A stretch of DNA of 38,837 nucleotides from a virus: positions 1 to 38,837 of the IMG/VR virus record IMGVR_UViG_3300044655_000285. The stretch is one strand, 5' to 3'. The notes below the pieces were generated by a model, which worked only from the letters and a program-made list of their open reading frames with translations, did no database searches and had not been told where the DNA came from. The number at the start of each line of letters is the position of its first letter. Within the stretch, counting starts at the first letter, position 1. The translations under genes and the position numbers were made by a program. This document shows positions 3,511 to 38,069 of this stretch, in pieces.

Positions 3511-4050
3511 TTATAGAGGAATGTCATCTTCAAAGTCAGCAGGATTACTTGGATCATATGATACTGTTGCTTTAGCATCTTTACCAAATACCCAATCACT
3601 AAGTTCAGTAGCTAGTGATAATACTTCTGCTTTGCTTACTGTCTTAGCACCTACTGTTAAGATAGAGATAGCATTAGACAAAGAAGATTGACGAACAATT
3701 AATTCTTGTCGAGCTGCACGTTCTTCTTTAGTTTCATAGTTACTACCTGTTACTCGTGCTCCACTTGTACTTGATGCTGGTGCTGGTGCCACTGGTGCTC
3801 CTCCTTCTGTACCAATTCCTGTCCATTGCCAGTAACCTTGATCATCTTTCTGTGATACTACTTCTACTACATCACCTTTATTCCAGCTACCAGCTGCTTT
3901 AAACACAGAAGGATTACTGAATGACATTAACTTCTTGTTACCAACCTTACCATCTGCACCCTTGTAAGTTACTTCTAATGACTGGTAACTACGACCATTC
4001 TTAGCAGCGTGGGTGTTAGGTGTACCTACATCAATTACTGTGATTTGCAT
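3511..4050 (-). CDS. Single-stranded DNA-binding protein-like (T7 gp2.5 role)
   Basis: The 179-residue product has a beta-rich N-terminal half (MQITVIDVG, SLEVTYK, GDVVEVVS) of the kind seen in OB folds, then a Pro/Ala/Ser linker (APVAPAPASSTSG). It ends in an acidic tail, DFEDDIPL, the hallmark by which SSB proteins bind replication partners. It lies directly after the polymerase palm gene, overlapping it by 16 bases, with GGAG eight bases before the ATG. I infer that it coats replicating ssDNA and recruits the phage polymerase. Primary-sequence similarity to a specific family is not certain; the tail and context carry the call. Confidence 0.75.
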   Translation of the reverse strand: MQITVIDVGTPNTHAAKNGRSYQSLEVTYKGADGKVGNKKLMSFSNPSVFKAAGSWNKGDVVEVVSQKDDQGYWQWTGIGTEGGAPVAPAPASSTSGARVTGSNYETKEERAARQELIVRQSSLSNAISILTVGAKTVSKAEVLSLATELSDWVFGKDAKATVSYDPSNPADFEDDIPL

Positions 4051-4757
4051 ACGATCTTCTCCATATTGCCCCAGTCAGGTCCAACTTCACATTCGACCCT
4101 CATAGGTAAGTTAAAATCTTGTCCGAACATTTTCTTAAAGTTAGCTGGTACGTCGTTGAAACACTTATCAACTAAACTTACTATACTATTATTATCCCAT
4201 ATTTTAGGATCGAAGTCAAGTATTATTGAATCATGTACTGTATTAACAAGTAGTACTCCTTTCTTTTCTTTTAGCCTGTTACGCAACGACACTCGTGCGA
4301 TGGACATGAGGTCTGCCCCGAGCCCCTGGACTGGGTAATTAAGGATTCTAGTTCTAGGCCATACGGCTTTTCCATACTTGATCTCTGGTTCGTAGTTGTA
4401 GACTCTTCCTGTAGGCATAACGAGTTTCCTGTCTCGTTTAGCTTGATCAAGGATTTTTGTATGCCAGTCCCTGAGTCCCACATATTTTCCATAGAACTGA
4501 TCGATAACTCCTTGCCAGAAATCTTCTCCACCAATGTCTTTAAAGTTAGGATCGTTTGCGTAACTATATGCCGATCCGCCATATATGAGTCGGAAGACGA
4601 ATGTTTTAGCGATAAGTCTACTTGGCAATCCGAATCGTTGTTGGTTATCTGCATGTTGATCAACTTCATTCCATATCTCCTTTAGTGCGACTGGATCTTG
4701 GCTAAGATAGGTAGCACCAACCCACTCTAATTGTTTAGCATCAGCTTGTAATAACAT
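4035..4757 (-). CDS. DNA polymerase family A, C-terminal part (palm and fingers), separate ORF
   Basis: This 240-residue protein starts almost exactly at motif A. QADAKQLEWV (residues 4-13) carries the catalytic Asp and the QxE of the family. Motif B appears near 50 (AKTFVFRLIYGG with its Lys and Tyr) and motif C near 172 (NTVHDSI, with the catalytic HD). All key residues are present, so the fragment looks functional when paired with the upstream ORF. The ATG at 4757 lies 29 bases after the stop of the N-terminal half and has only a weak AGGG ahead of it. All three frames contain a stop near the junction, so the two halves cannot be joined by one simple frameshift. Confidence 0.88.
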   Translation of the reverse strand: MLLQADAKQLEWVGATYLSQDPVALKEIWNEVDQHADNQQRFGLPSRLIAKTFVFRLIYGGSAYSYANDPNFKDIGGEDFWQGVIDQFYGKYVGLRDWHTKILDQAKRDRKLVMPTGRVYNYEPEIKYGKAVWPRTRILNYPVQGLGADLMSIARVSLRNRLKEKKGVLLVNTVHDSIILDFDPKIWDNNSIVSLVDKCFNDVPANFKKMFGQDFNLPMRVECEVGPDWGNMEKIVCKSQ

Positions 4758-4786
4758 TATAATCCCTATCTATTCTTTCGTATACG

Positions 4787-5989
4787 TCAAGCAAATCTTG
4801 TATAGAATAACTGTTTGATTTCTCCATCAAAGTTTTGCAGGTTTGGTCTACTACTTGAGAGTCGTCCTGTTCTTGCAACACATTGGTTAAGTTGTCCATG
4901 AATCTTTCCTTCCTTCCACTTAGATTCCTCTCGTAACTTAATGAGTCCTCTGTAGTATGTAGACACACGCTTCTCTAGTTCAGCTCGCTTGAGTAACAAC
5001 TCAATGACTTCAAGGGCTTTCTTAGATCCACGTAGTGATCGTAACGTTGATTCATCTGTAGAATACAAACCTTCCTTAGCTAACTCAGAACCTTTTAAAG
5101 GTTTAATTAGCCTAGGAAATTCTACTTCGTAGTCTTCCCACTTTTCTTTTGGTTCACCAGCTCTAGCACCAGTTTTAAAGAACCCGCAAGGAACTCTACG
5201 ACGGAGCCTAATGCTACCACCGTATAGGAAAGCGCTAAGATGATCGACGCTATTAAGGTTAAGACTATCACAAGAATGCTCGTTGTAAAGTAACCTGTCA
5301 AGTCTTTCAATGTCTTCGTCAAGTTGTTTAGCAAGCTCATTACTTTTCTCCTCATCATATAACAATCCATTAAATTCCATTTCTTGTAGTACAAGTAAGT
5401 CCTGATTGTGAAGACTAACTAACCTACGTAGTAATGGTTTGTCTTTAAGTTCTTCTAATTGTTTTAAGTACACTTGTCTAGTTAAGTCTAGATCTTTTAG
5501 TAAGTACTCTTCAAGAAGATCTCTTGGAATATCTGGTGTATCAATACCATTCTTCCAGTACTGCTCTGATACTACATCTAACTTTGATTCTAATCCATAG
5601 TATTCACATACTCCATTAAGACTAGGGTAAGTATCTTTCTGCCCTGTTAAAATAAAGTGTACTACTTGACAATCCCAAATACGTTTGTCTGAGAATGTAA
5701 TACCATATCGTGCTAACCAATGTAAGTCAAACTTAATGTTAAATCCTATGAGCACTTCTGCACTATCAATGGTAGATTGTATAGTACGTAAGTGATGGAC
5801 GTAAGGACTGCTATCATACTCAATTGAAAAGCAAGATCTATCCAAGCCGACATAACAGAGTTTATTTGTTTCATCAAATGGGTTTCCTTTATTTGAAATA
5901 GTTGTTTCTACATCTAAGACTAACTCATTAGCCACAGCAATCTCCGTTAGGTTCTTCAAACTCTGTACGTTTTTGATTAATATAATCAT
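4787..5989 (-). CDS. DNA polymerase family A, N-terminal part (3'-5' exonuclease and thumb)
   Basis: From an ATG at 5989 (an alternative is 6001) the product is 400 residues. The proofreading exonuclease is intact: LVLDVETT near 25 (DxE), IGFNIKFDLHWL near 85 (N..FD) and YLLKDLDLT near 155 (Y..KD). The thumb and the pre-palm motif ARTGRLSSSRPNLQN follow. The frame stops at TGA, nine residues past KQLFYTRF, just where motif A should begin. The chosen start keeps the first exonuclease strand (MIILIKNV). A GTG at 5935 with GGAG before it would remove part of the fold and is less likely. It overlaps the 50-aa gene upstream. Confidence 0.88.
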   Translation of the reverse strand: MIILIKNVQSLKNLTEIAVANELVLDVETTISNKGNPFDETNKLCYVGLDRSCFSIEYDSSPYVHHLRTIQSTIDSAEVLIGFNIKFDLHWLARYGITFSDKRIWDCQVVHFILTGQKDTYPSLNGVCEYYGLESKLDVVSEQYWKNGIDTPDIPRDLLEEYLLKDLDLTRQVYLKQLEELKDKPLLRRLVSLHNQDLLVLQEMEFNGLLYDEEKSNELAKQLDEDIERLDRLLYNEHSCDSLNLNSVDHLSAFLYGGSIRLRRRVPCGFFKTGARAGEPKEKWEDYEVEFPRLIKPLKGSELAKEGLYSTDESTLRSLRGSKKALEVIELLLKRAELEKRVSTYYRGLIKLREESKWKEGKIHGQLNQCVARTGRLSSSRPNLQNFDGEIKQLFYTRFA

Positions 5990-6080
5990 TGATACTTGCA
6001 ATTACATAATCAGTTTGTAATCCTTCAAGACTATTAGCTAACTTTTGAATCTCATCTAAAATTTCTAGTGCATCATCCAT
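5928..6080 (-). CDS. Small protein, 50 aa, between helicase and polymerase
   Basis: An ATG at 6080 with a strong GAGGAG eight bases upstream opens a 50-codon frame, MDDALEILDEIQKLANSLEG, ending in NGDCCG. It starts right after the helicase stop and its end overlaps the polymerase start in another frame. The ribosome binding site is better than that of the polymerase itself, so this short gene may couple translation into the polymerase. It is acidic and predicted helical, with a terminal Cys pair. No family recognised. Confidence 0.6.
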   Translation of the reverse strand: MDDALEILDEIQKLANSLEGLQTDYVIASINDYINQKRTEFEEPNGDCCG

Positions 6081-6081
6081 C

Positions 6082-7320
6082 TTACAACTCCTCGTATCGT
6101 GCTATCTCTGGTTTAATTAATACTTGTACTGAACCATGACGTAAGTCAGGTAGAGTATCAGTATCTCCTAATAACTTGTTCTTACAAATGTTAAAGTATC
6201 TAGATCTGCTGGTGTTGTCTTGTTCTTTCCCAATACCCATGATCCAATCAGCCTCACCTTGCTTGGCTGTCTTACTACCATCAACCATATCCATTGTTAA
6301 CCATAGCTTACCTTCTGCTTCACCACTTGCTTGTGATACAGCAATGACAGGTGCATATGTCTTAGCAATCTCACGAGCCCATTGATAAATCTGTTTAAGT
6401 TCAAGGTCATTACGATCACCTTTGAATCCTTTGATCTTATCAATCTGATCGAAGATAATTAACGACGGATTAGACTGTTTAAGGATCGCATCAATTCTAG
6501 ATCGAGAGCTTGAGTCTTCAAAGTCAAGGATCTTAATACGATTCCCTGTAACACTTTCGTACTGCCTCTGGCGTCTCTCTCTATCAGAAAACAGATGGTC
6601 TGTAGGGACACCAAGAGCTGCTTGATAACATCTAATTGCAACTTTGTTCCCTTGTTCCTCGTTATTAAACCATAAGACTTCACCATCTGTTTGAGTAACC
6701 ATGTGCGTAATCTCAGATGCGAGGAAGGTAGTCTTCCCTGTCTCAGGTCTAGCAAAGATAAAGCCAAAGTCTCCTTTGCGTAGCGAGCCAAGACTTTTGT
6801 TAAGCCAGTTGGTCCTCCAACGGAGACCTGGCGATGCGACTTGCGACTCATATAAATCCTCCAAATTCATGACAACAGGTTTAGCTTCATCAACTGTAAT
6901 CTCTTGATGCTCAAACTTTGAGAACAGTTCTAGTAAATCTTTTACAGGAGCTTTGCCATCTTCTACATCTAGTGCTAATTTAGCTACGTCTCCTGATAGA
7001 GAACGTCGTCGATGCTCTTCAAGTAATTCAATGACGACATCCCTATTAACTTCTAAAGAAAGAATCTCTGATACAAGATTATTAAAGTCAGTTCTTTCAG
7101 AATCTTTTAATAAATAATTACTATTATAAACTACTTCTAAATCATTACTATTAATATTATTACTATTACTATACGTAGTATAGTAGTTATTAATAGTTAT
7201 AAATAATTTATATATATTATTATAATTAATCTTAATATAATTAATGTTAACATATCTATAGTACTTTGTAAAGAGTTCTTTATCTTCACAGAACAATTTA
7301 ATTATTTGCTTTTCAACCAT
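6082..7320 (-). CDS. Replicative DNA helicase (DnaB / T7 gp4 C-domain type)
   Basis: The 412-residue protein contains a RecA-type helicase core. Walker A is ARPETGKTT at residues 190-198, Walker B is LIIFDQIDK near 290, and a Gln-containing segment APVIAVSQASGE near 325 matches the H3 region. The first 100 residues are unusual: residues 22-70 are packed with Asn, Tyr and Ile and come from a DNA stretch of only 12 percent GC. Unlike T7 gp4, the primase is a separate gene upstream, overlapping by 19 bases. AAAGGAG ten bases before the ATG supports the start. It should form the hexameric replisome helicase. Confidence 0.93.
   Translation of the reverse strand: MVEKQIIKLFCEDKELFTKYYRYVNINYIKINYNNIYKLFITINNYYTTYSNSNNINSNDLEVVYNSNYLLKDSERTDFNNLVSEILSLEVNRDVVIELLEEHRRRSLSGDVAKLALDVEDGKAPVKDLLELFSKFEHQEITVDEAKPVVMNLEDLYESQVASPGLRWRTNWLNKSLGSLRKGDFGFIFARPETGKTTFLASEITHMVTQTDGEVLWFNNEEQGNKVAIRCYQAALGVPTDHLFSDRERRQRQYESVTGNRIKILDFEDSSSRSRIDAILKQSNPSLIIFDQIDKIKGFKGDRNDLELKQIYQWAREIAKTYAPVIAVSQASGEAEGKLWLTMDMVDGSKTAKQGEADWIMGIGKEQDNTSRSRYFNICKNKLLGDTDTLPDLRHGSVQVLIKPEIARYEEL
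7111..7257. other. Extreme AT island with inverted repeat inside the helicase gene
   Basis: By hand count 18 of 150 bases in 7111-7260 are G or C. The island contains an 8-bp inverted repeat, TACTATAC-GTA-GTATAGTA, at 7167-7185, and many TAT/TAA runs. It encodes a low-complexity Asn/Tyr/Ile stretch of the helicase. An easily melted, palindrome-containing element inside the replication cluster is a plausible origin or unwinding element. A simple-sequence expansion in a tolerant linker would explain it equally well. Confidence 0.4.
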
Positions 7321-8000
7321 TCACTTAATTCTCCTTTACTATATTCTTTAGGATCTAAAGGACTGATCACTACTGAGGAATTAAATCCCCTCTGTTTCAA
7401 ATTTCTTGCTATCTTAATCGCTTCATTAGCCTTGTCCCTATCTAACCATATCACTACAGATTTAAAGTGTCCTGATAAGCGTTGTATAACTTCTTCCGAC
7501 ATACTACTACCAAGCAAAGGTAAGGCACAGAATTCTGGAGATAACCTAGAGATCTTAATTGCAGAAAGAATATCTTCTACACATACTATCTTATCAGCAT
7601 ATCCATAAAATGTCAATGGCTTGATTCCGTTTGACATGTACTTAACTTTGTGATTACCAAAAGTTCTAGCTTGCCAGTAGTCAGGGGTCTTGACAAGCAC
7701 AAGTAATTGTGCATCATCATTCCATCCTATACCGAAGTCATTGATTTCATTAGGAGTTATTCCGTATGACAGCAACCACTGCATTGCTGGCTTAGGAATA
7801 TCTTGACTAACTTCAATATCTTTTGGTAGGGTTCTCCGCATAGTGTGGTCTTGCTCTGCAATCCTATTACGAATACTTCCAATGTCATTCTTTAGTTTGT
7901 GATACTTACAACCAAAGCACCAGAAGTGGTCATCATATTCTGCCAAGTTATCTTTACTACCACAACGAGGACAATTGATATGTCTTAAAAATTTGCTCAT
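7302..8000 (-). CDS. DNA primase (zinc finger plus TOPRIM-like)
   Basis: The chosen ATG at 8000 gives 232 residues, MSKFLRHINCPRCGSKDNL. A zinc-binding module opens the protein (CPRCG near 10 and CFGCK near 28). The catalytic part has a TOPRIM-like pattern: VCVEDILSAIKI with its Glu near 140, and VVIWLDRDKANEA with DxD near 185. It therefore makes RNA primers for the phage replisome, the role of the N-terminal half of T7 gp4, here as a separate polypeptide from the helicase. A longer frame from 8057 overlaps the zinc-finger gene upstream and is less likely. AGGA lies about 12 bases before the selected start. Confidence 0.88.
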   Translation of the reverse strand: MSKFLRHINCPRCGSKDNLAEYDDHFWCFGCKYHKLKNDIGSIRNRIAEQDHTMRRTLPKDIEVSQDIPKPAMQWLLSYGITPNEINDFGIGWNDDAQLLVLVKTPDYWQARTFGNHKVKYMSNGIKPLTFYGYADKIVCVEDILSAIKISRLSPEFCALPLLGSSMSEEVIQRLSGHFKSVVIWLDRDKANEAIKIARNLKQRGFNSSVVISPLDPKEYSKGELSEWLKSK

Positions 8001-8007
8001 GAAGTAG

Positions 8008-8199
8008 TTAATCCTCGCTCCATTCACTATAGTCAGAGATGATTTCTGTTTGTACAAGTAGGTCTTCCCTATCTGTACTTAAGATATCATCTTTGATTGT
8101 AGCGTAACAATGATTACACATGTCAATGTAATCTCCATGTAAGTCTTTACGAGTTGCCTCATAGTCATTAAGTTCTGCATTACAAGCTAAACATCTCAT
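8008..8199 (-). CDS. Small zinc-finger protein, 63 aa
   Basis: Two CxxC pairs, CLACN at residue 3 and CNHC near 28, form a compact zinc ribbon, followed by an acidic tail ending SEWSED. The start overlaps the ATP-grasp stop as ATGA. Similar short proteins with MRCLACNAEL are common next to replication genes in T7-like phages, as far as I recall, with no defined function. Binding to nucleic acid or to a host protein is the natural guess. Confidence 0.75.
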   Translation of the reverse strand: MRCLACNAELNDYEATRKDLHGDYIDMCNHCYATIKDDILSTDREDLLVQTEIISDYSEWSED

Positions 8200-8981
8200 T
8201 GATTTAACTCCTGTAAATAATTATTAAAAGCTTCAGTGTACTTAGTAAGTGTAGTACCTACTAGTCCAGGTGCTGTGTTTACTTCGAACACAAATGCTTT
8301 GCCATCACGTTCACGATAACCAATATCAACAGCCCCGAAGTCGAGGCCAAGAATAGAGACAGCATGAACACTTGCATCGGTGATGATACTAGGTATGCTA
8401 ATGTCACTCCGAGCATAGATCCAACCGTTAGAATGATTACGAATCCCAGAACCAGAAGGGCCAAGCCCACGTTTTCTCTTTTTCTGCTGAACATCTAATA
8501 CCTTTCCTCTAAATACATGAACACGAAACTCATACTTATGTTTAGTTCCTACTGTATATAATGGAGCATCTACTAAATCATAAGTATTAGATGCTATTAC
8601 TATACCAGAACCTGAATGACCTGTCAATGATGTACGACAATATATTGCAGCAGAGGTAGTACCTCCTTCACTAGCAGTGTAGAGAAGTTGGTCAGCCTCA
8701 TATCTTGTAGTACACCATAAGGGAAGATGCTGAAAACCAGCAGCCTCTAATGCTTTAAATGTTTTAAGTTTATTACAAGCTAAAGCAATTGCACTATGGC
8801 TATTAAGATCATTAGGATGTGATTTAAAATTAGCTGGCCTAGAATTGCCCCAGTTAATAATAACATCACGACGTCTAGCATCGTACGTTGGGCGTACTCG
8901 CTTGACTCCTAGACTATTAGCTAAAGATTTAGAACTAATACTTCCTATCTTATAAGGAAATACTTTTAATCTAAAACGCAT
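8196..8981 (-). CDS. ATP-grasp ligase (RimK-like fold)
   Basis: This 261-residue protein has the signature of an ATP-grasp carboxylate-amine ligase. It shows a nucleotide-binding segment (KHKYEFRVHVFRGKVLDVQ near 150-168) with the Lys-rich KKRKRG following, and the metal-binding segment DFGAVDIGY with FVFEVNTAPGL near 230-240 (the E and N that hold Mg-ATP). The family forms amide bonds through an acyl-phosphate, adding amino acids to peptides or proteins. It is the last gene of an operon that also encodes a COOH-NH2 ligase and a class II glutaminase, linked by two small paralogues. AAAGGA seven bases before the ATG supports the start. The substrate is unknown. Confidence 0.85.
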   Translation of the reverse strand: MRFRLKVFPYKIGSISSKSLANSLGVKRVRPTYDARRRDVIINWGNSRPANFKSHPNDLNSHSAIALACNKLKTFKALEAAGFQHLPLWCTTRYEADQLLYTASEGGTTSAAIYCRTSLTGHSGSGIVIASNTYDLVDAPLYTVGTKHKYEFRVHVFRGKVLDVQQKKRKRGLGPSGSGIRNHSNGWIYARSDISIPSIITDASVHAVSILGLDFGAVDIGYRERDGKAFVFEVNTAPGLVGTTLTKYTEAFNNYLQELNQ

Positions 8982-9282
8982 ATTCTATTCCTTTCTTTCT
9001 ATCTTGGAAACGTCTATCTAATTGTTTAATCTTTTTAATAACATGACCATGAGGACCTGTTACTATTTCTTTTTCTTTAATTAACTCTAACCAATTAGGA
9101 CTAAAGTTATATGGTAAACCAACAAGATCTACTACATCATTACCAATCCATCTAATAATATATGATTCATCTAGATCAATCTCATCAGACATCTCACCAG
9201 TCCATGTTGGAAACTCATCCCAATCATCAGGAGGTGCAATAGAAACTTCATCTCCTACTTCAAAGTCAGAATTAAAAGGCAT
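8971..9282 (-). CDS. Small protein A of the amidoligase island, 103 aa
   Basis: The start is set at 9282 (MPFNSDFEVGDEV), with AAAGGAG seven bases upstream. The N-terminal half looks like a small beta barrel (DFEVGDEVSI, ESYIIRWIG, VVDLVGLP). The tail reads PHGHVIKKIK, then a basic helix, then EYAF at the end. The same tail, PHYHVIRKIK to GYAF, ends the neighbouring 99-aa protein, so the two are paralogues. The terminal Tyr-Ala-Phe codons overlap the ATG of the ATP-grasp gene. Possible roles are a substrate, a carrier or an adaptor of the ligases. No known domain name is claimed. Confidence 0.75.
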   Translation of the reverse strand: MPFNSDFEVGDEVSIAPPDDWDEFPTWTGEMSDEIDLDESYIIRWIGNDVVDLVGLPYNFSPNWLELIKEKEIVTGPHGHVIKKIKQLDRRFQDRKKGIEYAF

Positions 9283-9571
9283 ACCCTTGCTCCTTTCTTT
9301 TAGCATTCATTAGTTTAATCTTACGAATAACATGGTAATGAGGGTTAGCTATTAAAGAAGTGTCTGCTTTATCTACAACTTTCCAAGGATAGTCATCATT
9401 AATACCCATAAATAAAGTTCTAAATTTAATTTTATCTTCATCACCTTCTTGGAATACAGATTCTACTACAACTGCTTTAGGATTACCATTAGAATATACA
9501 TCAACTAGTACATATCTATCTGATGTAGATTTGCCATCTCTAAAGCATTGAATTATATCATACTTTTCCAT
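9272..9571 (-). CDS. Small protein B of the amidoligase island, 99 aa
   Basis: This 99-residue beta-rich protein (YVLVDVYSN, KAVVVESVF, WKVVDKAD) ends with PHYHVIRKIK, a basic segment and GYAF. It shares this end and the preceding W..V/L pattern with protein A at 8971-9282, which indicates tandem duplication with divergent N-termini. It starts in a TAATG overlap with the glutaminase gene. Its last codons overlap the start of protein A in the same register as protein A overlaps the ATP-grasp gene. Function unknown; genetic linkage to three ligase/amidase genes suggests that it works with them. Confidence 0.75.
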   Translation of the reverse strand: MEKYDIIQCFRDGKSTSDRYVLVDVYSNGNPKAVVVESVFQEGDEDKIKFRTLFMGINDDYPWKVVDKADTSLIANPHYHVIRKIKLMNAKRKEQGYAF

Positions 9572-10464
9572 TAGTAGTCACTCCATGAATCATAAGGATT
9601 GTATTTGTATGGTGATGTTTGTTTGTACTGTGTGTAGTCTGCTTCATAGTCATCATCATAAAAATCTAGATGACTGAAAGGTACATTGTAAGCAAAGTCT
9701 TTACCAGAGAACTCATCATCATTCATTAAGTTTGCAGTGTAGTCACTGTTAACATCAATGACTTCAAAGATCTCACCACGATTAAATAATACTTTAGTAT
9801 CTTCATCATAGAAGTTACGATTTAAACGAACAAGTTCACCTTCTTTAACTACTTGTTTAGGTTGAACAGTAGGTTTAGTAAATAAAGCTGGTTGATTATA
9901 CTGTACTTTAGGTACAACTACAACCTCTTTTGGTTTGTAACTTGAGTTAGAATACCATACACCTTGATCCCATACACCTTTGTTTTCGTTGAAGATCTCT
10001 GCATTTCCATGACGATCAAGGAAGATAAGCTTAGAATAACTAATACGAGACTCAATTAATTCTTTAATTGCTGGCTCAAACATAGCTAGGTTACCCCATT
10101 TATTTACTAATGGTTTAACAATCTCTTCATTAAAGTGATATGTATCTGAGAAATCTTTACTACCGAAACCTGAGATAACACCATTGTGTACAAACGCAAA
10201 GCTTTTGTTTACATTAAATGGATGACAGTTAGCTTCATTAATTACACCATGTGTTTTAATACGGAAGTGTAATACAGCTTGACGTTCTTGATGTGGAGCA
10301 TAAGCATCCCAGAATTCTTTAAATGTAAAGAAACCTTTTTGCACATGCAACTGTCGATTCTTAACATACATAAACCCTGCACCATCAGGATTGCTGTTGA
10401 AGCTTTGTTTAAGATTGTCGTATGGAATTACAATATCTTTGTCTTTATAAATAGCGATACACAT
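9571..10464 (-). CDS. Class II glutamine amidotransferase (Ntn hydrolase)
   Basis: The 297-residue product begins MCIAIYKDKD, so after Met removal Cys2 is the N-terminal nucleophile of class II glutaminases. Supporting motifs are NPDGAGFMY near 30, HFRIKTHG near 77 (Arg-Thr-Gly substrate loop), CHPF near 90 and FVHNGVISG near 102 (the HNG oxyanion motif). It should release ammonia from glutamine. The C-terminal 110 residues are beta-rich and end in a Tyr-rich tail (SPYKYNPYDSWSDY). Its ATG overlaps the amidoligase stop, so ammonia is probably delivered to that ligase. Glutaminase activity is well supported; the acceptor is unknown. Confidence 0.88.
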   Translation of the reverse strand: MCIAIYKDKDIVIPYDNLKQSFNSNPDGAGFMYVKNRQLHVQKGFFTFKEFWDAYAPHQERQAVLHFRIKTHGVINEANCHPFNVNKSFAFVHNGVISGFGSKDFSDTYHFNEEIVKPLVNKWGNLAMFEPAIKELIESRISYSKLIFLDRHGNAEIFNENKGVWDQGVWYSNSSYKPKEVVVVPKVQYNQPALFTKPTVQPKQVVKEGELVRLNRNFYDEDTKVLFNRGEIFEVIDVNSDYTANLMNDDEFSGKDFAYNVPFSHLDFYDDDYEADYTQYKQTSPYKYNPYDSWSDY

Positions 10465-12002
10465 TATGCGAATCCTTTCAATTTAGATACAAGTTCTGGA
10501 TATGCTTTACGTTGTGGCATTACCCAATTAATAAATGTTTGGTAGAATGTTTGTTGCTTAAGAGCAGCACCAAGATTACAAGGTTTAGCATAGTCAACAA
10601 TTGCTTGACAGAACTGTACTTTAGCAGCAAAGTCTTCATATGTCAAGGGAGTACTGAAGATACGGAACTCAATTGTATCTTTATTGTTTAGATTCAATGC
10701 GTTATAACGTGCACCTGAACGTTGTGTAATTGGAAATGTAATTGTACGATTACCTTGTGCACAATAACTATTTAAGTTACGACCTGCAATGTAGTTAATA
10801 AACTTATAATTGTCACTACGATTCATAAACTCAGTAAGTTTACCTACTGTAAGAGTTGATAAAGGTTTACGTGATACATGAACGTGCATACCTACTGATG
10901 GACCATTAGTAATTTCTTTAGGCTTATTCTCATAAAATAATTTAAAGACATCTAATTGAATATCAAGTGTTGCAGGACATGTAACTACTTCGAAGCCATG
11001 TTGAATTGAACCATCTGATTTCATAATGGCATGGCCTTTAAGTGCTCTGCCTACTTTCATACGTGCTACATCACGATCTGTAGTTTCGTATTCTAGTTCT
11101 ACACCTAGATATAATGTATCAGGTCGAACGTTCTTAGCTTTGAATTTAAGTAACTCAGGAACTTTAGTTGAGTAATTGTGAATACGATATGCTTGTTCAG
11201 CACATGATTTACATTCACCAAATTCATTTACTATAGATTGAGGAACTGTTCTACTACATGTAGGACAATTACAAGTTGTATCAGTTACTGTATTATATAC
11301 ATAACCATTGATTACAGCTTCATCTGGACGTAACCAGAATCCTGTTTCACTGTGATAACTATAGTTATATTCTTCAATATCTAAATCACGATGTATAAAT
11401 TGACGTTCACCACTAAGGACAGCACTAATTGCTTCATGTTTATAAATAAATTTACCAGATAAATAACAACATACAATAGTAAATATATTATTATCTCTTA
11501 GGAACTCTCCCATTTTAGTAAATAGTACTTGACTATTTTCTTCTAAGTTATACTCACGCATAAACTTAGTCTTGACGTGATTATGTACAGCATCTCTAAG
11601 ATCCATGGTTGGTTTGGAATAATAGAAAGCACTCAGTCTAACCCTAGTTCTAAGCTTTTCAACAACTGAGGCATAAATTTGCCCATTATTTTTAAGAATC
11701 TTCATAGGATTAAGTAAGTAATAAAGGCCATCAAGTATAGCAGAATAATTTGTATCTGCTGTTTGTGTAATGATACCCTTCTCTAAAGCATAATCTCGAT
11801 CAAGATAAAATACGTATGGATTCCATCCGTCTTTACTTGTTTTAAGAATATCTTTACCATCTAGTGTGAATGTTAGAGACTTCATTACATGATCATGAGT
11901 ATAAGGATGTTTAGCTTCTCCTTCTGTAATTACTAATCTACCATTACTATCTGGAATAGTTTGTCCAGCTTCTCTGAACTCTTTCCAACCAAAGCGTTTC
12001 AT
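10464..12002 (-). CDS. COOH-NH2 amidoligase (glutamine-synthetase-like fold) with zinc ribbon
   Basis: The 512-residue protein has three parts. Residues 1 to about 240 are unassigned. A zinc ribbon follows (CNCPTC and CKSC near 244-268). The C-terminal domain has amidoligase motifs: YLGVELEYE near 298 (metal-binding ExE), KSDGSIQHGFEVVT near 330, GMHVHVSR near 372 (HxH) and TIEFRIFSTP near 447. These enzymes activate a carboxylate with ATP and join it to an amine or ammonia. With the overlapping glutaminase gene it probably forms an amidating pair. AGGAGA seven bases before the ATG supports the start. The target could be a phage peptide, a host protein C-terminus or a cell-wall carboxylate. 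Confidence 0.85.
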   Translation of the reverse strand: MKRFGWKEFREAGQTIPDSNGRLVITEGEAKHPYTHDHVMKSLTFTLDGKDILKTSKDGWNPYVFYLDRDYALEKGIITQTADTNYSAILDGLYYLLNPMKILKNNGQIYASVVEKLRTRVRLSAFYYSKPTMDLRDAVHNHVKTKFMREYNLEENSQVLFTKMGEFLRDNNIFTIVCCYLSGKFIYKHEAISAVLSGERQFIHRDLDIEEYNYSYHSETGFWLRPDEAVINGYVYNTVTDTTCNCPTCSRTVPQSIVNEFGECKSCAEQAYRIHNYSTKVPELLKFKAKNVRPDTLYLGVELEYETTDRDVARMKVGRALKGHAIMKSDGSIQHGFEVVTCPATLDIQLDVFKLFYENKPKEITNGPSVGMHVHVSRKPLSTLTVGKLTEFMNRSDNYKFINYIAGRNLNSYCAQGNRTITFPITQRSGARYNALNLNNKDTIEFRIFSTPLTYEDFAAKVQFCQAIVDYAKPCNLGAALKQQTFYQTFINWVMPQRKAYPELVSKLKGFA

Positions 12003-36010: not shown

Positions 36011-37861
36011 TTAGTTAACTTCACAACTTCCACCTGAACAAGCTAAGTTATCCTTAGCCTCTGTTAAATCATCATGTTCAACTACCTGTGTTAAATCAAT
36101 AGCTGCCATATGTTTAAACATTTCTTCAAACACTTCTTTAGTACAATCTTCGAATGGTGCTTGTTGATATGTACCACCATTGTAAGGTAGAACAGAAATA
36201 CCTGTGTAGTCATAGCGATTATCCCACATCCACTTACCACACTCTTTCCATTCATCATCTTTCAATGAGATAGTGCATGATACATTATGTTTGTTGTTAC
36301 CACTAACATGACCATTAGCTACCCATTCTAGATTGAATCGTTTAACTCGTTCTAAAATCTCCTTATAACTTTCTGTTCGTAAAATTGCACCTTGTGGAGC
36401 ACGTTGTGGGAAACTCATTACAGCTTCTAAGTGAGGTTTGTATACACAGTCCTCAATTAAAGAAGGAAATCTGTCAACCATGTAGCTATATAACGGCTCA
36501 TTCTTTCCAACACGCATACGACGGATATAATAATCGTTATGCCAAGCATGAATTCCAGAACTACTTCCAAGAACCAACGACGTTGTCCCTGCAGGTTTAA
36601 CAGTAGTAATACGGGCAGAAGAATTAATACCGATAAGAGCAGCAACACGTTTATTCTCCTCTACTGTAACTGCAGCAGCTTCATTTAAGTCAAGTTTAAG
36701 TACACCAGCTGAGGCAATACCTGTCATTGATACACCAAGTAAAGCTTCTCGTTCTGTTGTTTCTTTCCAAACACTACGTAAGTAATGGAAGTCTGTATAT
36801 CCTGCTTGTAGTGTACCAATTAGAGTAGCTGCTTTGACTCGTGCATTTAACTCTTCTTGTGTTACTACATCTGATACGTTAACTTCTACTAGGTTACAGT
36901 ACTGATTAGAGTTAAGACTAATCTCTGCACATGGGTTAGTACCAATGTCATAGTCGTTAGTCCAGAATACACCAGGTTCTCCTGAACCAGATAACTCTAC
37001 TTTCTTCCAGATGTCATACCATTCTTGTTCAGTAACTTCTTCCCTATTAAGGACTACTGAATTGTTAGCACGACCTCGTTGTGGATTTAATTCCCACCAT
37101 GCACCTGACTTAGCTGATAACATATCTAAATCATCCTTGTCAAACAAGGAGATTAATGCAGCACGTCTAATGCCGCCAGATAAGACAGCATCGGCAATAT
37201 GACAAACCATGTCGTGTACTTCAATAGGCTTGAGTTTTCTTCCGATACTGTCATTAAGCACACTACGAAGCTTATCCAAACAGATACGTAAAGGGTCTGG
37301 TCCAGGTGCCTTCCCTCCACTTGTGATAAGCCTACTCCCTTTAGGACGAATATCACGGAAATCAAACACAGGGTCAGACTTGCCAAGAGTGTAAGCTTTA
37401 ACAAGAACTTTAACAGCATCTGCCCAACCTTCAATAGAGTCTCCAACTAAGAATCTCCTTTGTTTAGATGATGGCCCAATAATCGTAGGTAGATTTTCAA
37501 CATGCCGCTTCTGAACAGAGAAGCCGACACCCGATCCACCAAGTAAGTTAAACATGGTTTCGCTAAAGACTGCTGGATGATCAACAGCGGAGAAAGCACA
37601 ATTAAACATACGGTTATTACTAAGCTCAATAGGAGTACCACCAAACTGTAACGAACGCATCGAAGGTAGAACTTGACGATTAAATACAAACGTGTATGCA
37701 CTTTTAATTTCATCCTTAATTTGTGGGTATTTACGCAAGTGCATTGCCATGTTACGTTGCACAAGTTCTTCCCAAGTTTCACGACGTTCTGCTTCTGGCA
37801 CGAATTTTGCATACTTGTTAAAAATAGTAATATCAGAGAGTACTTTCTGACTAATGTCCAT
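36011..37861 (-). CDS. Adenosylcobalamin-dependent (class II) ribonucleotide reductase, monomeric type
   Basis: The 616-residue enzyme (MDISQKVLSDITIFNKYAK) has the class II monomer layout of the Lactobacillus RTPR. The catalytic cysteines are Cys88 (MFNCAF) and Cys322 (QYCNLVEVN), with the radical-site group NPCAEI (Cys311, Glu313) and a C-terminal swinging pair CSGGSC (608 and 613). It makes deoxynucleotides for replication with B12 and needs no second subunit. RTPR is about 739 residues, so this is a compact form. An in-frame ATG at 37942 would add 27 residues that are also open in the copy at base 1. SD signals are weak for both starts. Confidence 0.93.
   Translation of the reverse strand: MDISQKVLSDITIFNKYAKFVPEAERRETWEELVQRNMAMHLRKYPQIKDEIKSAYTFVFNRQVLPSMRSLQFGGTPIELSNNRMFNCAFSAVDHPAVFSETMFNLLGGSGVGFSVQKRHVENLPTIIGPSSKQRRFLVGDSIEGWADAVKVLVKAYTLGKSDPVFDFRDIRPKGSRLITSGGKAPGPDPLRICLDKLRSVLNDSIGRKLKPIEVHDMVCHIADAVLSGGIRRAALISLFDKDDLDMLSAKSGAWWELNPQRGRANNSVVLNREEVTEQEWYDIWKKVELSGSGEPGVFWTNDYDIGTNPCAEISLNSNQYCNLVEVNVSDVVTQEELNARVKAATLIGTLQAGYTDFHYLRSVWKETTEREALLGVSMTGIASAGVLKLDLNEAAAVTVEENKRVAALIGINSSARITTVKPAGTTSLVLGSSSGIHAWHNDYYIRRMRVGKNEPLYSYMVDRFPSLIEDCVYKPHLEAVMSFPQRAPQGAILRTESYKEILERVKRFNLEWVANGHVSGNNKHNVSCTISLKDDEWKECGKWMWDNRYDYTGISVLPYNGGTYQQAPFEDCTKEVFEEMFKHMAAIDLTQVVEHDDLTEAKDNLACSGGSCEVN
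37353..37479. repeat. Exact 127-base repeat of window bases 1-127
   Basis: Bases 37353-37479 equal 1-127 without a mismatch; base 37480 is T where base 128 is C. The match cannot be extended left because the window starts there. It lies inside RNR coding sequence. The length equals a common largest assembly k-mer. Confidence 0.95.
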
Positions 37862-37913
37862 ATAAATTCTTTCTTTTCTAGGATAGTTTAATAAATTAAT
37901 TGGCGGAAACCAG

Positions 37914-38069
37914 TCATTCCAACTCAGCAAGAAGGGTTTCATACTTGTCTTCTATCTTAAATGGGAAGGCTTCCACAATCTCTTCTGTTGTTAAACCGAG
38001 TAGGTCAATGATGTCTTCTTCACTCACCTGCTCAATTATTCTTTGTTTTAATTCACTTAGTGTTAGCAT
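37914..38069 (-). CDS. Small conserved phage protein, 51 aa (homologue of 562-717)
   Basis: This is the second form of the 51-residue protein directly upstream of RNR: MLTLSELKQRIIEQVSEEDI, with LLGLTTEE and KIEDKYETLLAELE. About two thirds of residues match the copy at 562-717, and many nucleotide differences fall at third codon positions, so both are under protein-level constraint. It overlaps the DUF3310-like gene upstream by 17 bases and the alternative RNR start downstream. Function unknown. Confidence 0.75.
   Translation of the reverse strand: MLTLSELKQRIIEQVSEEDIIDLLGLTTEEIVEAFPFKIEDKYETLLAELE

What the first reader, a model, noticed from the sequence alone, without database searches (positions are those of the whole stretch)
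8196..12002. Five-gene amide/peptide-ligase island embedded between early and replication genes
Seen: five overlapping genes in one direction, encoding a zinc-ribbon COOH-NH2 amidoligase, a class II glutaminase with N-terminal Cys, two small paralogues and an ATP-grasp ligase. Known: amidoligases, GAT-II glutaminases and ATP-grasp enzymes co-occur in predicted peptide-tagging or amidation pathways surveyed by Iyer, Aravind and colleagues, and some are phage-borne, but targets are mostly unknown. Inference: the glutaminase supplies ammonia to the amidoligase, the ATP-grasp enzyme adds an amino acid or peptide, and the small proteins act as carrier, substrate or adaptor. Possible targets are a host protein C-terminus, a phage protein or peptidoglycan carboxylates (envelope change against other phages).
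Basis: partly seen in the sequence, partly recalled or inferred. Interest (0 to 1): 0.8.

Follow-up and report, generated by a model that had tools for sequence, protein, structure and literature searches.

The report
Phage amide-ligase cassette with SH3-like helpers
A lytic podovirus carries, just ahead of its DNA primase, a slimmed-down version of a known but biochemically untested phage cassette of amide-forming enzymes, plus a fast-evolving family of small SH3-like proteins that is found only in phages of this group that also have the RimK-like ligase.

Summary
Five co-directional, end-to-start overlapping genes (8196-12002, minus strand) encode a GS-fold amidoligase with a zinc ribbon, a class-II glutaminase, two small homologous proteins and a RimK-like ATP-grasp ligase, directly ahead of primase and helicase. 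Catalytic residues are invariant in over 100 homologues. Amidoligase and glutaminase co-diverge tightly and travel together.

The cassette is not new. A longer version (cyclotransferase, glutaminase, PF14395 ligase, amidoligase, ATP-grasp, primase) is published for phiEco32, LUZ24, RIO-1 and PSA-HP1 phages as a proposed peptidoglycan-modification/superinfection cassette, and amidoligase plus GATase for OM43 phages MEP401/402. The window variant lacks the PF14395 ligase and the cyclotransferase and has another gene order.

What looks undescribed is the small-protein family: SH3-like barrel plus C-terminal helix, 1-5 copies, faster-evolving than the enzymes, in 40 of 57 ATP-grasp-positive and 0 of 24 ATP-grasp-negative contigs lacking the PF14395 ligase. 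Its striking conserved C-terminus (RKxxGYAF) is not a substrate tag: it is the ribosome-binding site and ATG of the next gene, hidden in 11-nt overlaps.

Chemistry (glutamine-fed amide formation plus amino-acid ligation) is well supported by family; the target remains inferred.

The parts
10464..12002 (-). Amidoligase (AMDL): N-terminal domain, 4-Cys zinc ribbon (C246, C249, C264, C267), C-terminal GS-like Amidoligase_2 domain with E302/E304/D330/E338/H373/H375/R408/E445/R447
   Evidence: Pfam PF12224 27.8 bits over cut-off 22; invariant residues in 115 homologues and 45 aligned; AlphaFold pLDDT 90 with Foldseek best hits glutamine synthetase, YbdK, gamma-glutamylmethylamide synthetase, PafA, Dop
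9571..10464 (-). Class-II glutamine amidotransferase (GAT), nucleophile Cys2, with a C-terminal extension
   Evidence: GlmS-type profiles and structures; C2, R68, T71, H81, H93-N94-G95 invariant in about 115 sequences
9272..9571 (-). Small protein s2 (99 aa), member of the SH3-like + C-terminal helix family; its 3' end carries the SD and ATG of s1
   Evidence: family profile E 4.5e-12 and 3e-13; DNA junction AAAGAAAGGAGCAAGGGTATGCCTTTTAA
8971..9282 (-). Small protein s1 (103 aa from the ATG at 9282; first listed as 111 aa from 9306), SH3-like barrel plus helix
   Evidence: family profile E 9e-13; AlphaFold pLDDT 70: strands 12-15, 28-36, 40-45, 65-69, helix 79-96; ATG at -11 in the s2 overlap
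8196..8981 (-). RimK-like ATP-grasp ligase (ATPG): K71, R116, E151, R153, K167, D219, E233, N235
   Evidence: PHROG 2599 E 8e-73; RimK structures best in PDB, E 7e-8 with a 48-row profile; NCBIfam rimK_fam E 2e-6, below cut-off
8008..8199 (-). 63-aa zinc-ribbon protein with acidic C-terminus, downstream neighbour; belongs with the primase, not with the cassette
   Evidence: 17 of 35 contigs with it and enough upstream sequence have primase but no cassette gene
7302..8057 (-). DNA primase, continuing the same overlapping gene run
   Evidence: PHROG 47 E 1.7e-27; overlap series
6082..7320 (-). DnaB-like helicase, 63-69% identical to that of phages MEP401/402
   Evidence: PHROG 19 E 1.4e-50

Best explanation
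This is a reduced variant of the known podovirus amide/peptide-ligase cassette, expressed with the replication genes in one translationally coupled gene run. Core: the class-II glutaminase (GAT) releases ammonia from glutamine, and the GS-fold amidoligase (AMDL) activates a carboxylate with ATP and forms an amide with that ammonia, or with an amine (chemistry supported by family, fold and catalytic residues; coupling inferred from constant pairing and co-divergence). Add-on: the RimK-like ATP-grasp enzyme ligates an amino acid to a carboxylate (inferred from family), and the SH3-like small proteins bind and position the ligase or its target (inferred from fold, co-occurrence and rapid divergence). 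The substrate is probably cytosolic (inferred: the folds are those of soluble enzymes; no export signal was searched for). My leaning, as in the published proposal, is a cell-wall precursor carboxylate, altering the envelope against competing phages; a host protein target is almost as likely. Rough probabilities: cassette membership and chemistry 0.85; wall-precursor target 0.4; protein target 0.35; small metabolite 0.2.
For: Families and folds. Conserved catalytic residues in 104-115 homologues of each enzyme. Gene order AMDL-GAT-(small)-ATPG ahead of primase in dozens of viral contigs, and AMDL-GAT-small-small-ATPG in an independently binned contig, L260. AMDL-GAT distance correlation 0.945, or 0.88 after removing primase; ATPG with either 0.60-0.66 after removing primase. 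The same ATP-grasp family, amidoligase and glutaminase ahead of primase in classical cassettes of Vibrio, Escherichia and Pseudomonas phages. Published proposals of peptidoglycan modification and superinfection exclusion (PMC5498523; PMC10580990). From my own knowledge, not tested: the class-II GATase enzymes LtsA/AsnB1 amidate peptidoglycan meso-DAP, a precedent for this chemistry on the wall.
Against: I found no biochemistry for any member. ATPG is closer to RimK, a protein glutamate ligase, than to D-Ala-D-Ala ligase, which fits a protein or cofactor target at least as well as a wall precursor. GAT and ATPG fall below curated family cut-offs. The SH3-like family has no demonstrated partner. 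I found no experimental test of superinfection exclusion for any phage with the cassette.
Confidence: 0.55

Rival explanations
1. Protein-modification system: the RimK-like ligase adds one or more amino acids to the C-terminus or a side-chain carboxylate of a host protein (for example a ribosomal or RNA-polymerase protein), the amidoligase/glutaminase caps carboxylates as amides, and the SH3-like proteins are interchangeable target adaptors.
For: RimK is the closest solved relative. SH3/KOW-like domains bind proteins or RNA (fold; binding: general knowledge). The small proteins diverge faster than the enzymes (best-pair identity 0.39 against 0.53-0.67) and vary from one to five copies, and they track ATPG presence.
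Against: No target identified; 17 of 57 ATPG-positive contigs without PF14395 ligase lack a detectable small protein, so they are not obligatory; the classical cassettes have no such family detected.
Confidence: 0.35
2. The small proteins are ribosomally made precursor or carrier proteins modified at their conserved C-terminus (RKxxGYAF) by the ATP-grasp enzyme, as in amino-group carrier or graspetide pathways.
For: The tail is conserved and specific to the cassette: all 4 hits of a degenerate DNA pattern in 2.9 million viral contigs lie in the cassette, and the real hits of the second pattern also do. ATPG is RimK-like, a class that uses protein C-termini.
Against: In 22 of 22 tested proteins with the next gene's ATG at -11, the terminal residue is F or I; without this overlap only 9 of 41 end in F, and many members behind ATPG have other endings that again contain a Shine-Dalgarno-like sequence (FKFQGV = TTTAAATTTCAAGGAGTATAA). 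So the tail is explained by translation signals.
Confidence: 0.07
3. The acidic zinc-ribbon protein at 8008-8199 is a LysW-like amino-group carrier for the RimK-like ligase.
For: CxxC...CxxC ribbon, acidic C-terminus and position directly downstream of ATPG.
Against: It is present in the related phages that lack ATPG, and in 17 of 35 contigs with primase but no cassette gene at all; it follows the primase.
Confidence: 0.03
4. Small-metabolite pathway: the enzymes make or recycle gamma-glutamyl amides or peptides as nitrogen salvage or a small effector during infection.
For: The amidoligase fold neighbours include gamma-glutamylmethylamide synthetase and YbdK; many classical cassettes include gamma-glutamyl cyclotransferase.
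Against: Cyclotransferase and the PF14395 ligase are absent from the window variant; a metabolite role does not explain SH3-like helpers.
Confidence: 0.2

Closest known systems
Peptidoglycan-modification cassette of RIO-1/PSA-HP1, phiEco32, LUZ24-like and related podoviruses (PMC5498523; PMC3890496; PMC6209634; Iyer et al. 2009, not held)
   Same: Same ATP-grasp family (PHROG 2599), Amidoligase_2, class-II glutaminase, position ahead of primase/helicase
   Different: Window lacks the PF14395 COOH-NH2 ligase, the gamma-glutamyl cyclotransferase and the intervening 160-200-aa protein; order is AMDL-GAT-small-small-ATPG; it has the SH3-like family, not detected in the 30 contigs of the classical type
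OM43/Methylophilales phages MEP401 and MEP402 (PMC10580990)
   Same: Amidoligase + GATase pair (31-33% and 45-47% identical) ahead of Zn-ribbon, primase, helicase; helicase 63-69% identical
   Different: No ATP-grasp and no SH3-like small proteins in the fetched stretches
Mycobacteriophage Marvin group amidoligase + GATase
   Same: Adjacent AMDL and GAT
   Different: Distant (about 28-30% identity), no ATP-grasp detected in the fetched stretch, different genome context
RimK (ribosomal protein S6 glutamate ligase)
   Same: Best sequence match of ATPG among solved structures over about 200 residues
   Different: Well below the NCBIfam rimK_fam cut-off (27 against 143 bits); partners and target unknown

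Membership tests
Phage amide/peptide-ligase ('peptidoglycan modification') cassette | Amidoligase_2 next to a class-II glutaminase | tested here: met
Phage amide/peptide-ligase ('peptidoglycan modification') cassette | ATP-grasp of PHROG 2599, between these genes and primase | tested here: met
Phage amide/peptide-ligase ('peptidoglycan modification') cassette | Second ligase (PF14395, COOH-NH2 ligase) | tested here: not met
   no hit of the CNL profile in the window; present in 30 classical contigs. The window is therefore filed as a variant, not as a full member
Phage amide/peptide-ligase ('peptidoglycan modification') cassette | Gamma-glutamyl cyclotransferase (AIG2/GGCT) | tested here: not met
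   no hit in the window; variable in classical ones too
Phage amide/peptide-ligase ('peptidoglycan modification') cassette | Activity on peptidoglycan | not testable with these tools
   only proposed in the literature
Class-II glutamine amidotransferase (GlmS-type glutaminase) | N-terminal Cys nucleophile, Arg/Thr, HNG and Asp of the glutamine site | tested here: met
   C2, R68, T71, H93-N94-G95 invariant; D107 in 84 of 115 and in all 35 rows of the closer alignment
RimK family | Curated family score | tested here: not met
   27.3 bits against cut-off 143.4: RimK-like, not a RimK
RimK family | ATP-grasp metal/ATP residues (D, E, N) | tested here: met
   D219, E233, N235 and K71, R116, E151, K167 conserved at 97-100%
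Glutamine-synthetase-fold carboxylate-amine ligases | Fold and acidic/Arg active-site residues | tested here: met
   Foldseek top hits all in this superfamily, E 1e-4 to 2e-3; E302, E304, D330, E338, E445, R447 conserved. TM-scores are low (about 0.2-0.4), so fold class only
SH3-like domain proteins (small family) | Five-stranded SH3-like barrel | tested here: inconclusive
   AlphaFold pLDDT 70, four strands of three or more residues; Foldseek hits include SH3-type folds but all E > 0.1; Pfam SH3_12 in 3 of 44 members, best 1e-5
Amino-group carrier (LysW) system | Carrier linked genetically to the RimK-like ligase | tested here: not met
   the Zn-ribbon protein occurs without ATPG or cassette

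The most novel reading that the evidence does not exclude
The SH3-like small proteins are a rapidly diversifying set of specificity adaptors that direct one RimK-like ligase to different host targets, making the ATP-grasp half of the cassette a phage protein-tagging module with exchangeable adaptors, separable from the amidoligase/glutaminase core.
Probability: 0.15. Interest if true: 0.75.

Novelty: new variant of a known kind. Interest (0 to 1): 0.42.

Why it matters
Hundreds of phages of Escherichia, Pseudomonas, Vibrio and other bacteria carry these ligases (310 phage records hold the ATP-grasp), yet I found no reported substrate. The window lineage separates the cassette into a two-gene core and a ligase-plus-SH3 add-on, with natural presence/absence in close relatives, which gives a minimal system for finding the target. 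It also carries a warning: a conserved protein C-terminus can be a by-product of a ribosome-binding site in overlapping genes.

Tried and rejected
(1) The conserved C-terminal tail RKxxGYAF as a ligase substrate: two collection-wide pattern scans showed it is specific to the cassette, but codon-level inspection showed it encodes the SD and ATG of the next gene; rejected. (2) The zinc-ribbon protein as a LysW-like carrier: it follows the primase, not the ligase; rejected. (3) A defence-system reading: no PADLOC match for any of the five. (4) A bacterial origin or bacterial version of the cassette: the genome scan gave only three relatives, one a likely viral contig in an archaeal MAG (L260) with the identical order, two distant; little learned. 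(5) Primary papers (Iyer 2009, Hardies 2013, Marvin 2012) are not held, so their claims are cited through later papers. (6) Small-protein s1 against the annotated phage collection: no match.
Full report
Observation. The five genes are present exactly where reported, all on the minus strand. Read in the direction of transcription: amidoligase 12002-10464, class-II GATase 10464-9571, small protein s2 9571-9272, small protein s1, ATP-grasp 8981-8196. Overlaps are 1, 1, 11 and 11 nt, and the run continues without a break into a 63-aa zinc-ribbon gene, the primase and a DnaB-like helicase. s1 was listed from an ATG at 9306; the ATG at 9282, 11 nt before the end of the s2 gene and behind AAAGGAG, is the better start. 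The window is an IMG/VR virus record of 38,837 bases; its helicase is 63-69% identical to those of the Methylophilales (OM43) phages MEP401 and MEP402, filed under Zobellviridae in their records.

The enzymes. The amidoligase scores above Pfam's cut-off for Amidoligase_2. Its AlphaFold model (pLDDT 90) has glutamine-synthetase-superfamily ligases as its only significant structural matches: glutamine synthetase, YbdK, gamma-glutamylmethylamide synthetase, followed by PafA and Dop (TM-scores are low, so this supports fold class only). The zinc ribbon (C246, C249, C264, C267) is invariant in 45 homologues. The GATase matches the glutaminase domain of GlmS, and its nucleophile Cys2 and glutamine-site residues are conserved. 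The ATP-grasp protein belongs to PHROG 2599 (E 8e-73); its best solved relatives are RimK glutamate ligases, but it scores far below the RimK family cut-off, so it is RimK-like rather than a RimK. In 104-115 homologues of each enzyme the catalytic residues are conserved.

Gene-neighbourhood test. 167 sequences (the window and fetched loci) were laid out with profile HMMs. Collapsed to contigs with the GATase-to-primase stretch visible (111 contigs), three kinds appear: (i) contigs with ATPG but without the PF14395 ligase, as in the window (57); (ii) 30 contigs of the classical type with PF14395 ligase and ATPG, some with gamma-glutamyl cyclotransferase; (iii) 24 contigs, including MEP401/402, with AMDL-GAT but no ATPG. 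AMDL is undetected in only four contigs; in the layout such contigs begin at the GATase, i.e. truncation. In 42 contigs with AMDL, GAT, ATPG and primase and without PF14395 ligase, AMDL and GAT distances correlate at 0.945 (0.88 after removing primase), and ATPG with either at 0.85 (0.60-0.66 after removing primase); no permutation exceeded 0.37. So AMDL+GAT is the core and ATPG an add-on. An ATPG tree puts the window in supported groups of PF14395-less contigs (22 rows, 98/94; 57 rows, 96/92) and needs several changes of the PF14395 label overall; some 'no PF14395' rows there are truncated contigs.

The small proteins. s1 and s2 are only 23% identical but are found by one family profile. Members sit between GATase and ATPG, or behind ATPG, in 1-5 copies. 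Among contigs without PF14395 ligase, 40 of 57 with ATPG have at least one and 0 of 24 without ATPG has any (Fisher p 9e-10; contigs are related, so the p-value overstates independence). A contig binned with a thaumarchaeal genome (L260), probably viral, has the identical order AMDL-GAT-small-small-ATPG. The family is predicted as an SH3-like barrel with a C-terminal helix (pLDDT 70); Foldseek matches include SH3-type folds without significance, and a few members match Pfam SH3_12 or MIB_HERC2 weakly. The helix carries the only invariant column, K84. Best-pair identity between contigs averages 0.39 against 0.67 for ATPG, 0.60 for GATase and 0.53 for AMDL.

A tempting signal, explained. Many small proteins end in RKxxGYAF. 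A degenerate DNA pattern for KRKxxGYAF-stop hit only four contigs in all of IMG/VR, all cassettes; a second pattern gave nine, of which those that end real proteins are cassettes. This looked like a C-terminal ligation substrate. But at DNA level the tail is of the form AAAGGAGNNNGGNTATGCNTTTTAA: a Shine-Dalgarno sequence and the ATG of the next gene. All 22 family members with the ATG at -11 end in F or I; without this overlap only 9 of 41 end in F, and many members placed behind ATPG end in F[KQ]F[QK]G[VI], which again spells a Shine-Dalgarno-like AAGGAG ahead of the next start. The tail is a translational-coupling signal, so it is no evidence for a carrier or precursor role.

Zinc-ribbon neighbour. 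The 63-aa protein (8008-8199) resembles the amino-group carrier LysW superficially (CxxC...CxxC, acidic C-terminus). It occurs in the ATPG-less relatives, and in 17 of 35 informative contigs it occurs with primase and no cassette gene. It belongs with the primase.

What is known. RIO-1-like phages such as PSA-HP1 carry a seven-gene 'peptidoglycan modification cassette' hypothesised to prevent superinfection, said to be conserved in phiEco32, 7-11, PA11, tf, MR299-2, LUZ24, PaP3 and CW02 (PMC5498523). The UFV-P2 and TC6 papers list the same kinds of gene. OM43 phages carry amidoligase and GATase, with the wall-modification and secondary-metabolite proposals cited (PMC10580990). I confirmed the classical gene set in VPp1, Phriendly, vB_EcoP-101114UKE3, HZ2201 and two Melvirus genomes. 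The finding is therefore a new variant of a known kind; the SH3-like family and its link to the ATP-grasp gene were not mentioned in the passages I read.

Mechanism. Supported by sequence and fold: glutaminase, GS-fold carboxylate-amine ligase, RimK-like ATP-grasp ligase, all with intact active sites, encoded in one gene run with the replication proteins. Inferred: ammonia transfer from GATase to amidoligase; amino-acid ligation by ATPG; binding role of the SH3-like proteins. Unknown: the substrate. I lean to a cytosolic cell-wall precursor, as published, with a protein target nearly as likely. This is a leaning; nothing computed here separates them.

Noticed in passing
window 4035-6001: The DNA polymerase is split over two ORFs (4787-6001 and 4035-4757) with a small ORF (4741-4968) between, as in MEP401/402.
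   Followed up: no
window 36011-37942: A ribonucleotide reductase gene lies on the minus strand at the far end of the contig (PHROG 367, E 4e-126).
   Followed up: no
L074, L076, L088: In three ATP-grasp-less relatives a gamma-glutamyl cyclotransferase-like ORF occupies the slot between GATase and the zinc-ribbon gene where the ATP-grasp sits in others.
   Followed up: partly
L126, L129, L144, L156: Classical cassettes with a second ATP-grasp profile hit upstream of the GATase.
   Followed up: no
L088 2359-5678: GATase, zinc-ribbon and primase profile hits occur twice in a row, as if the cassette edge had been duplicated.
   Followed up: no
L260 (JAGWGB010000033.1): A contig binned as a thaumarchaeal MAG carries the same AMDL-GAT-small-small-ATPG order and is probably viral contamination.
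   Followed up: partly
   Followed up: partly
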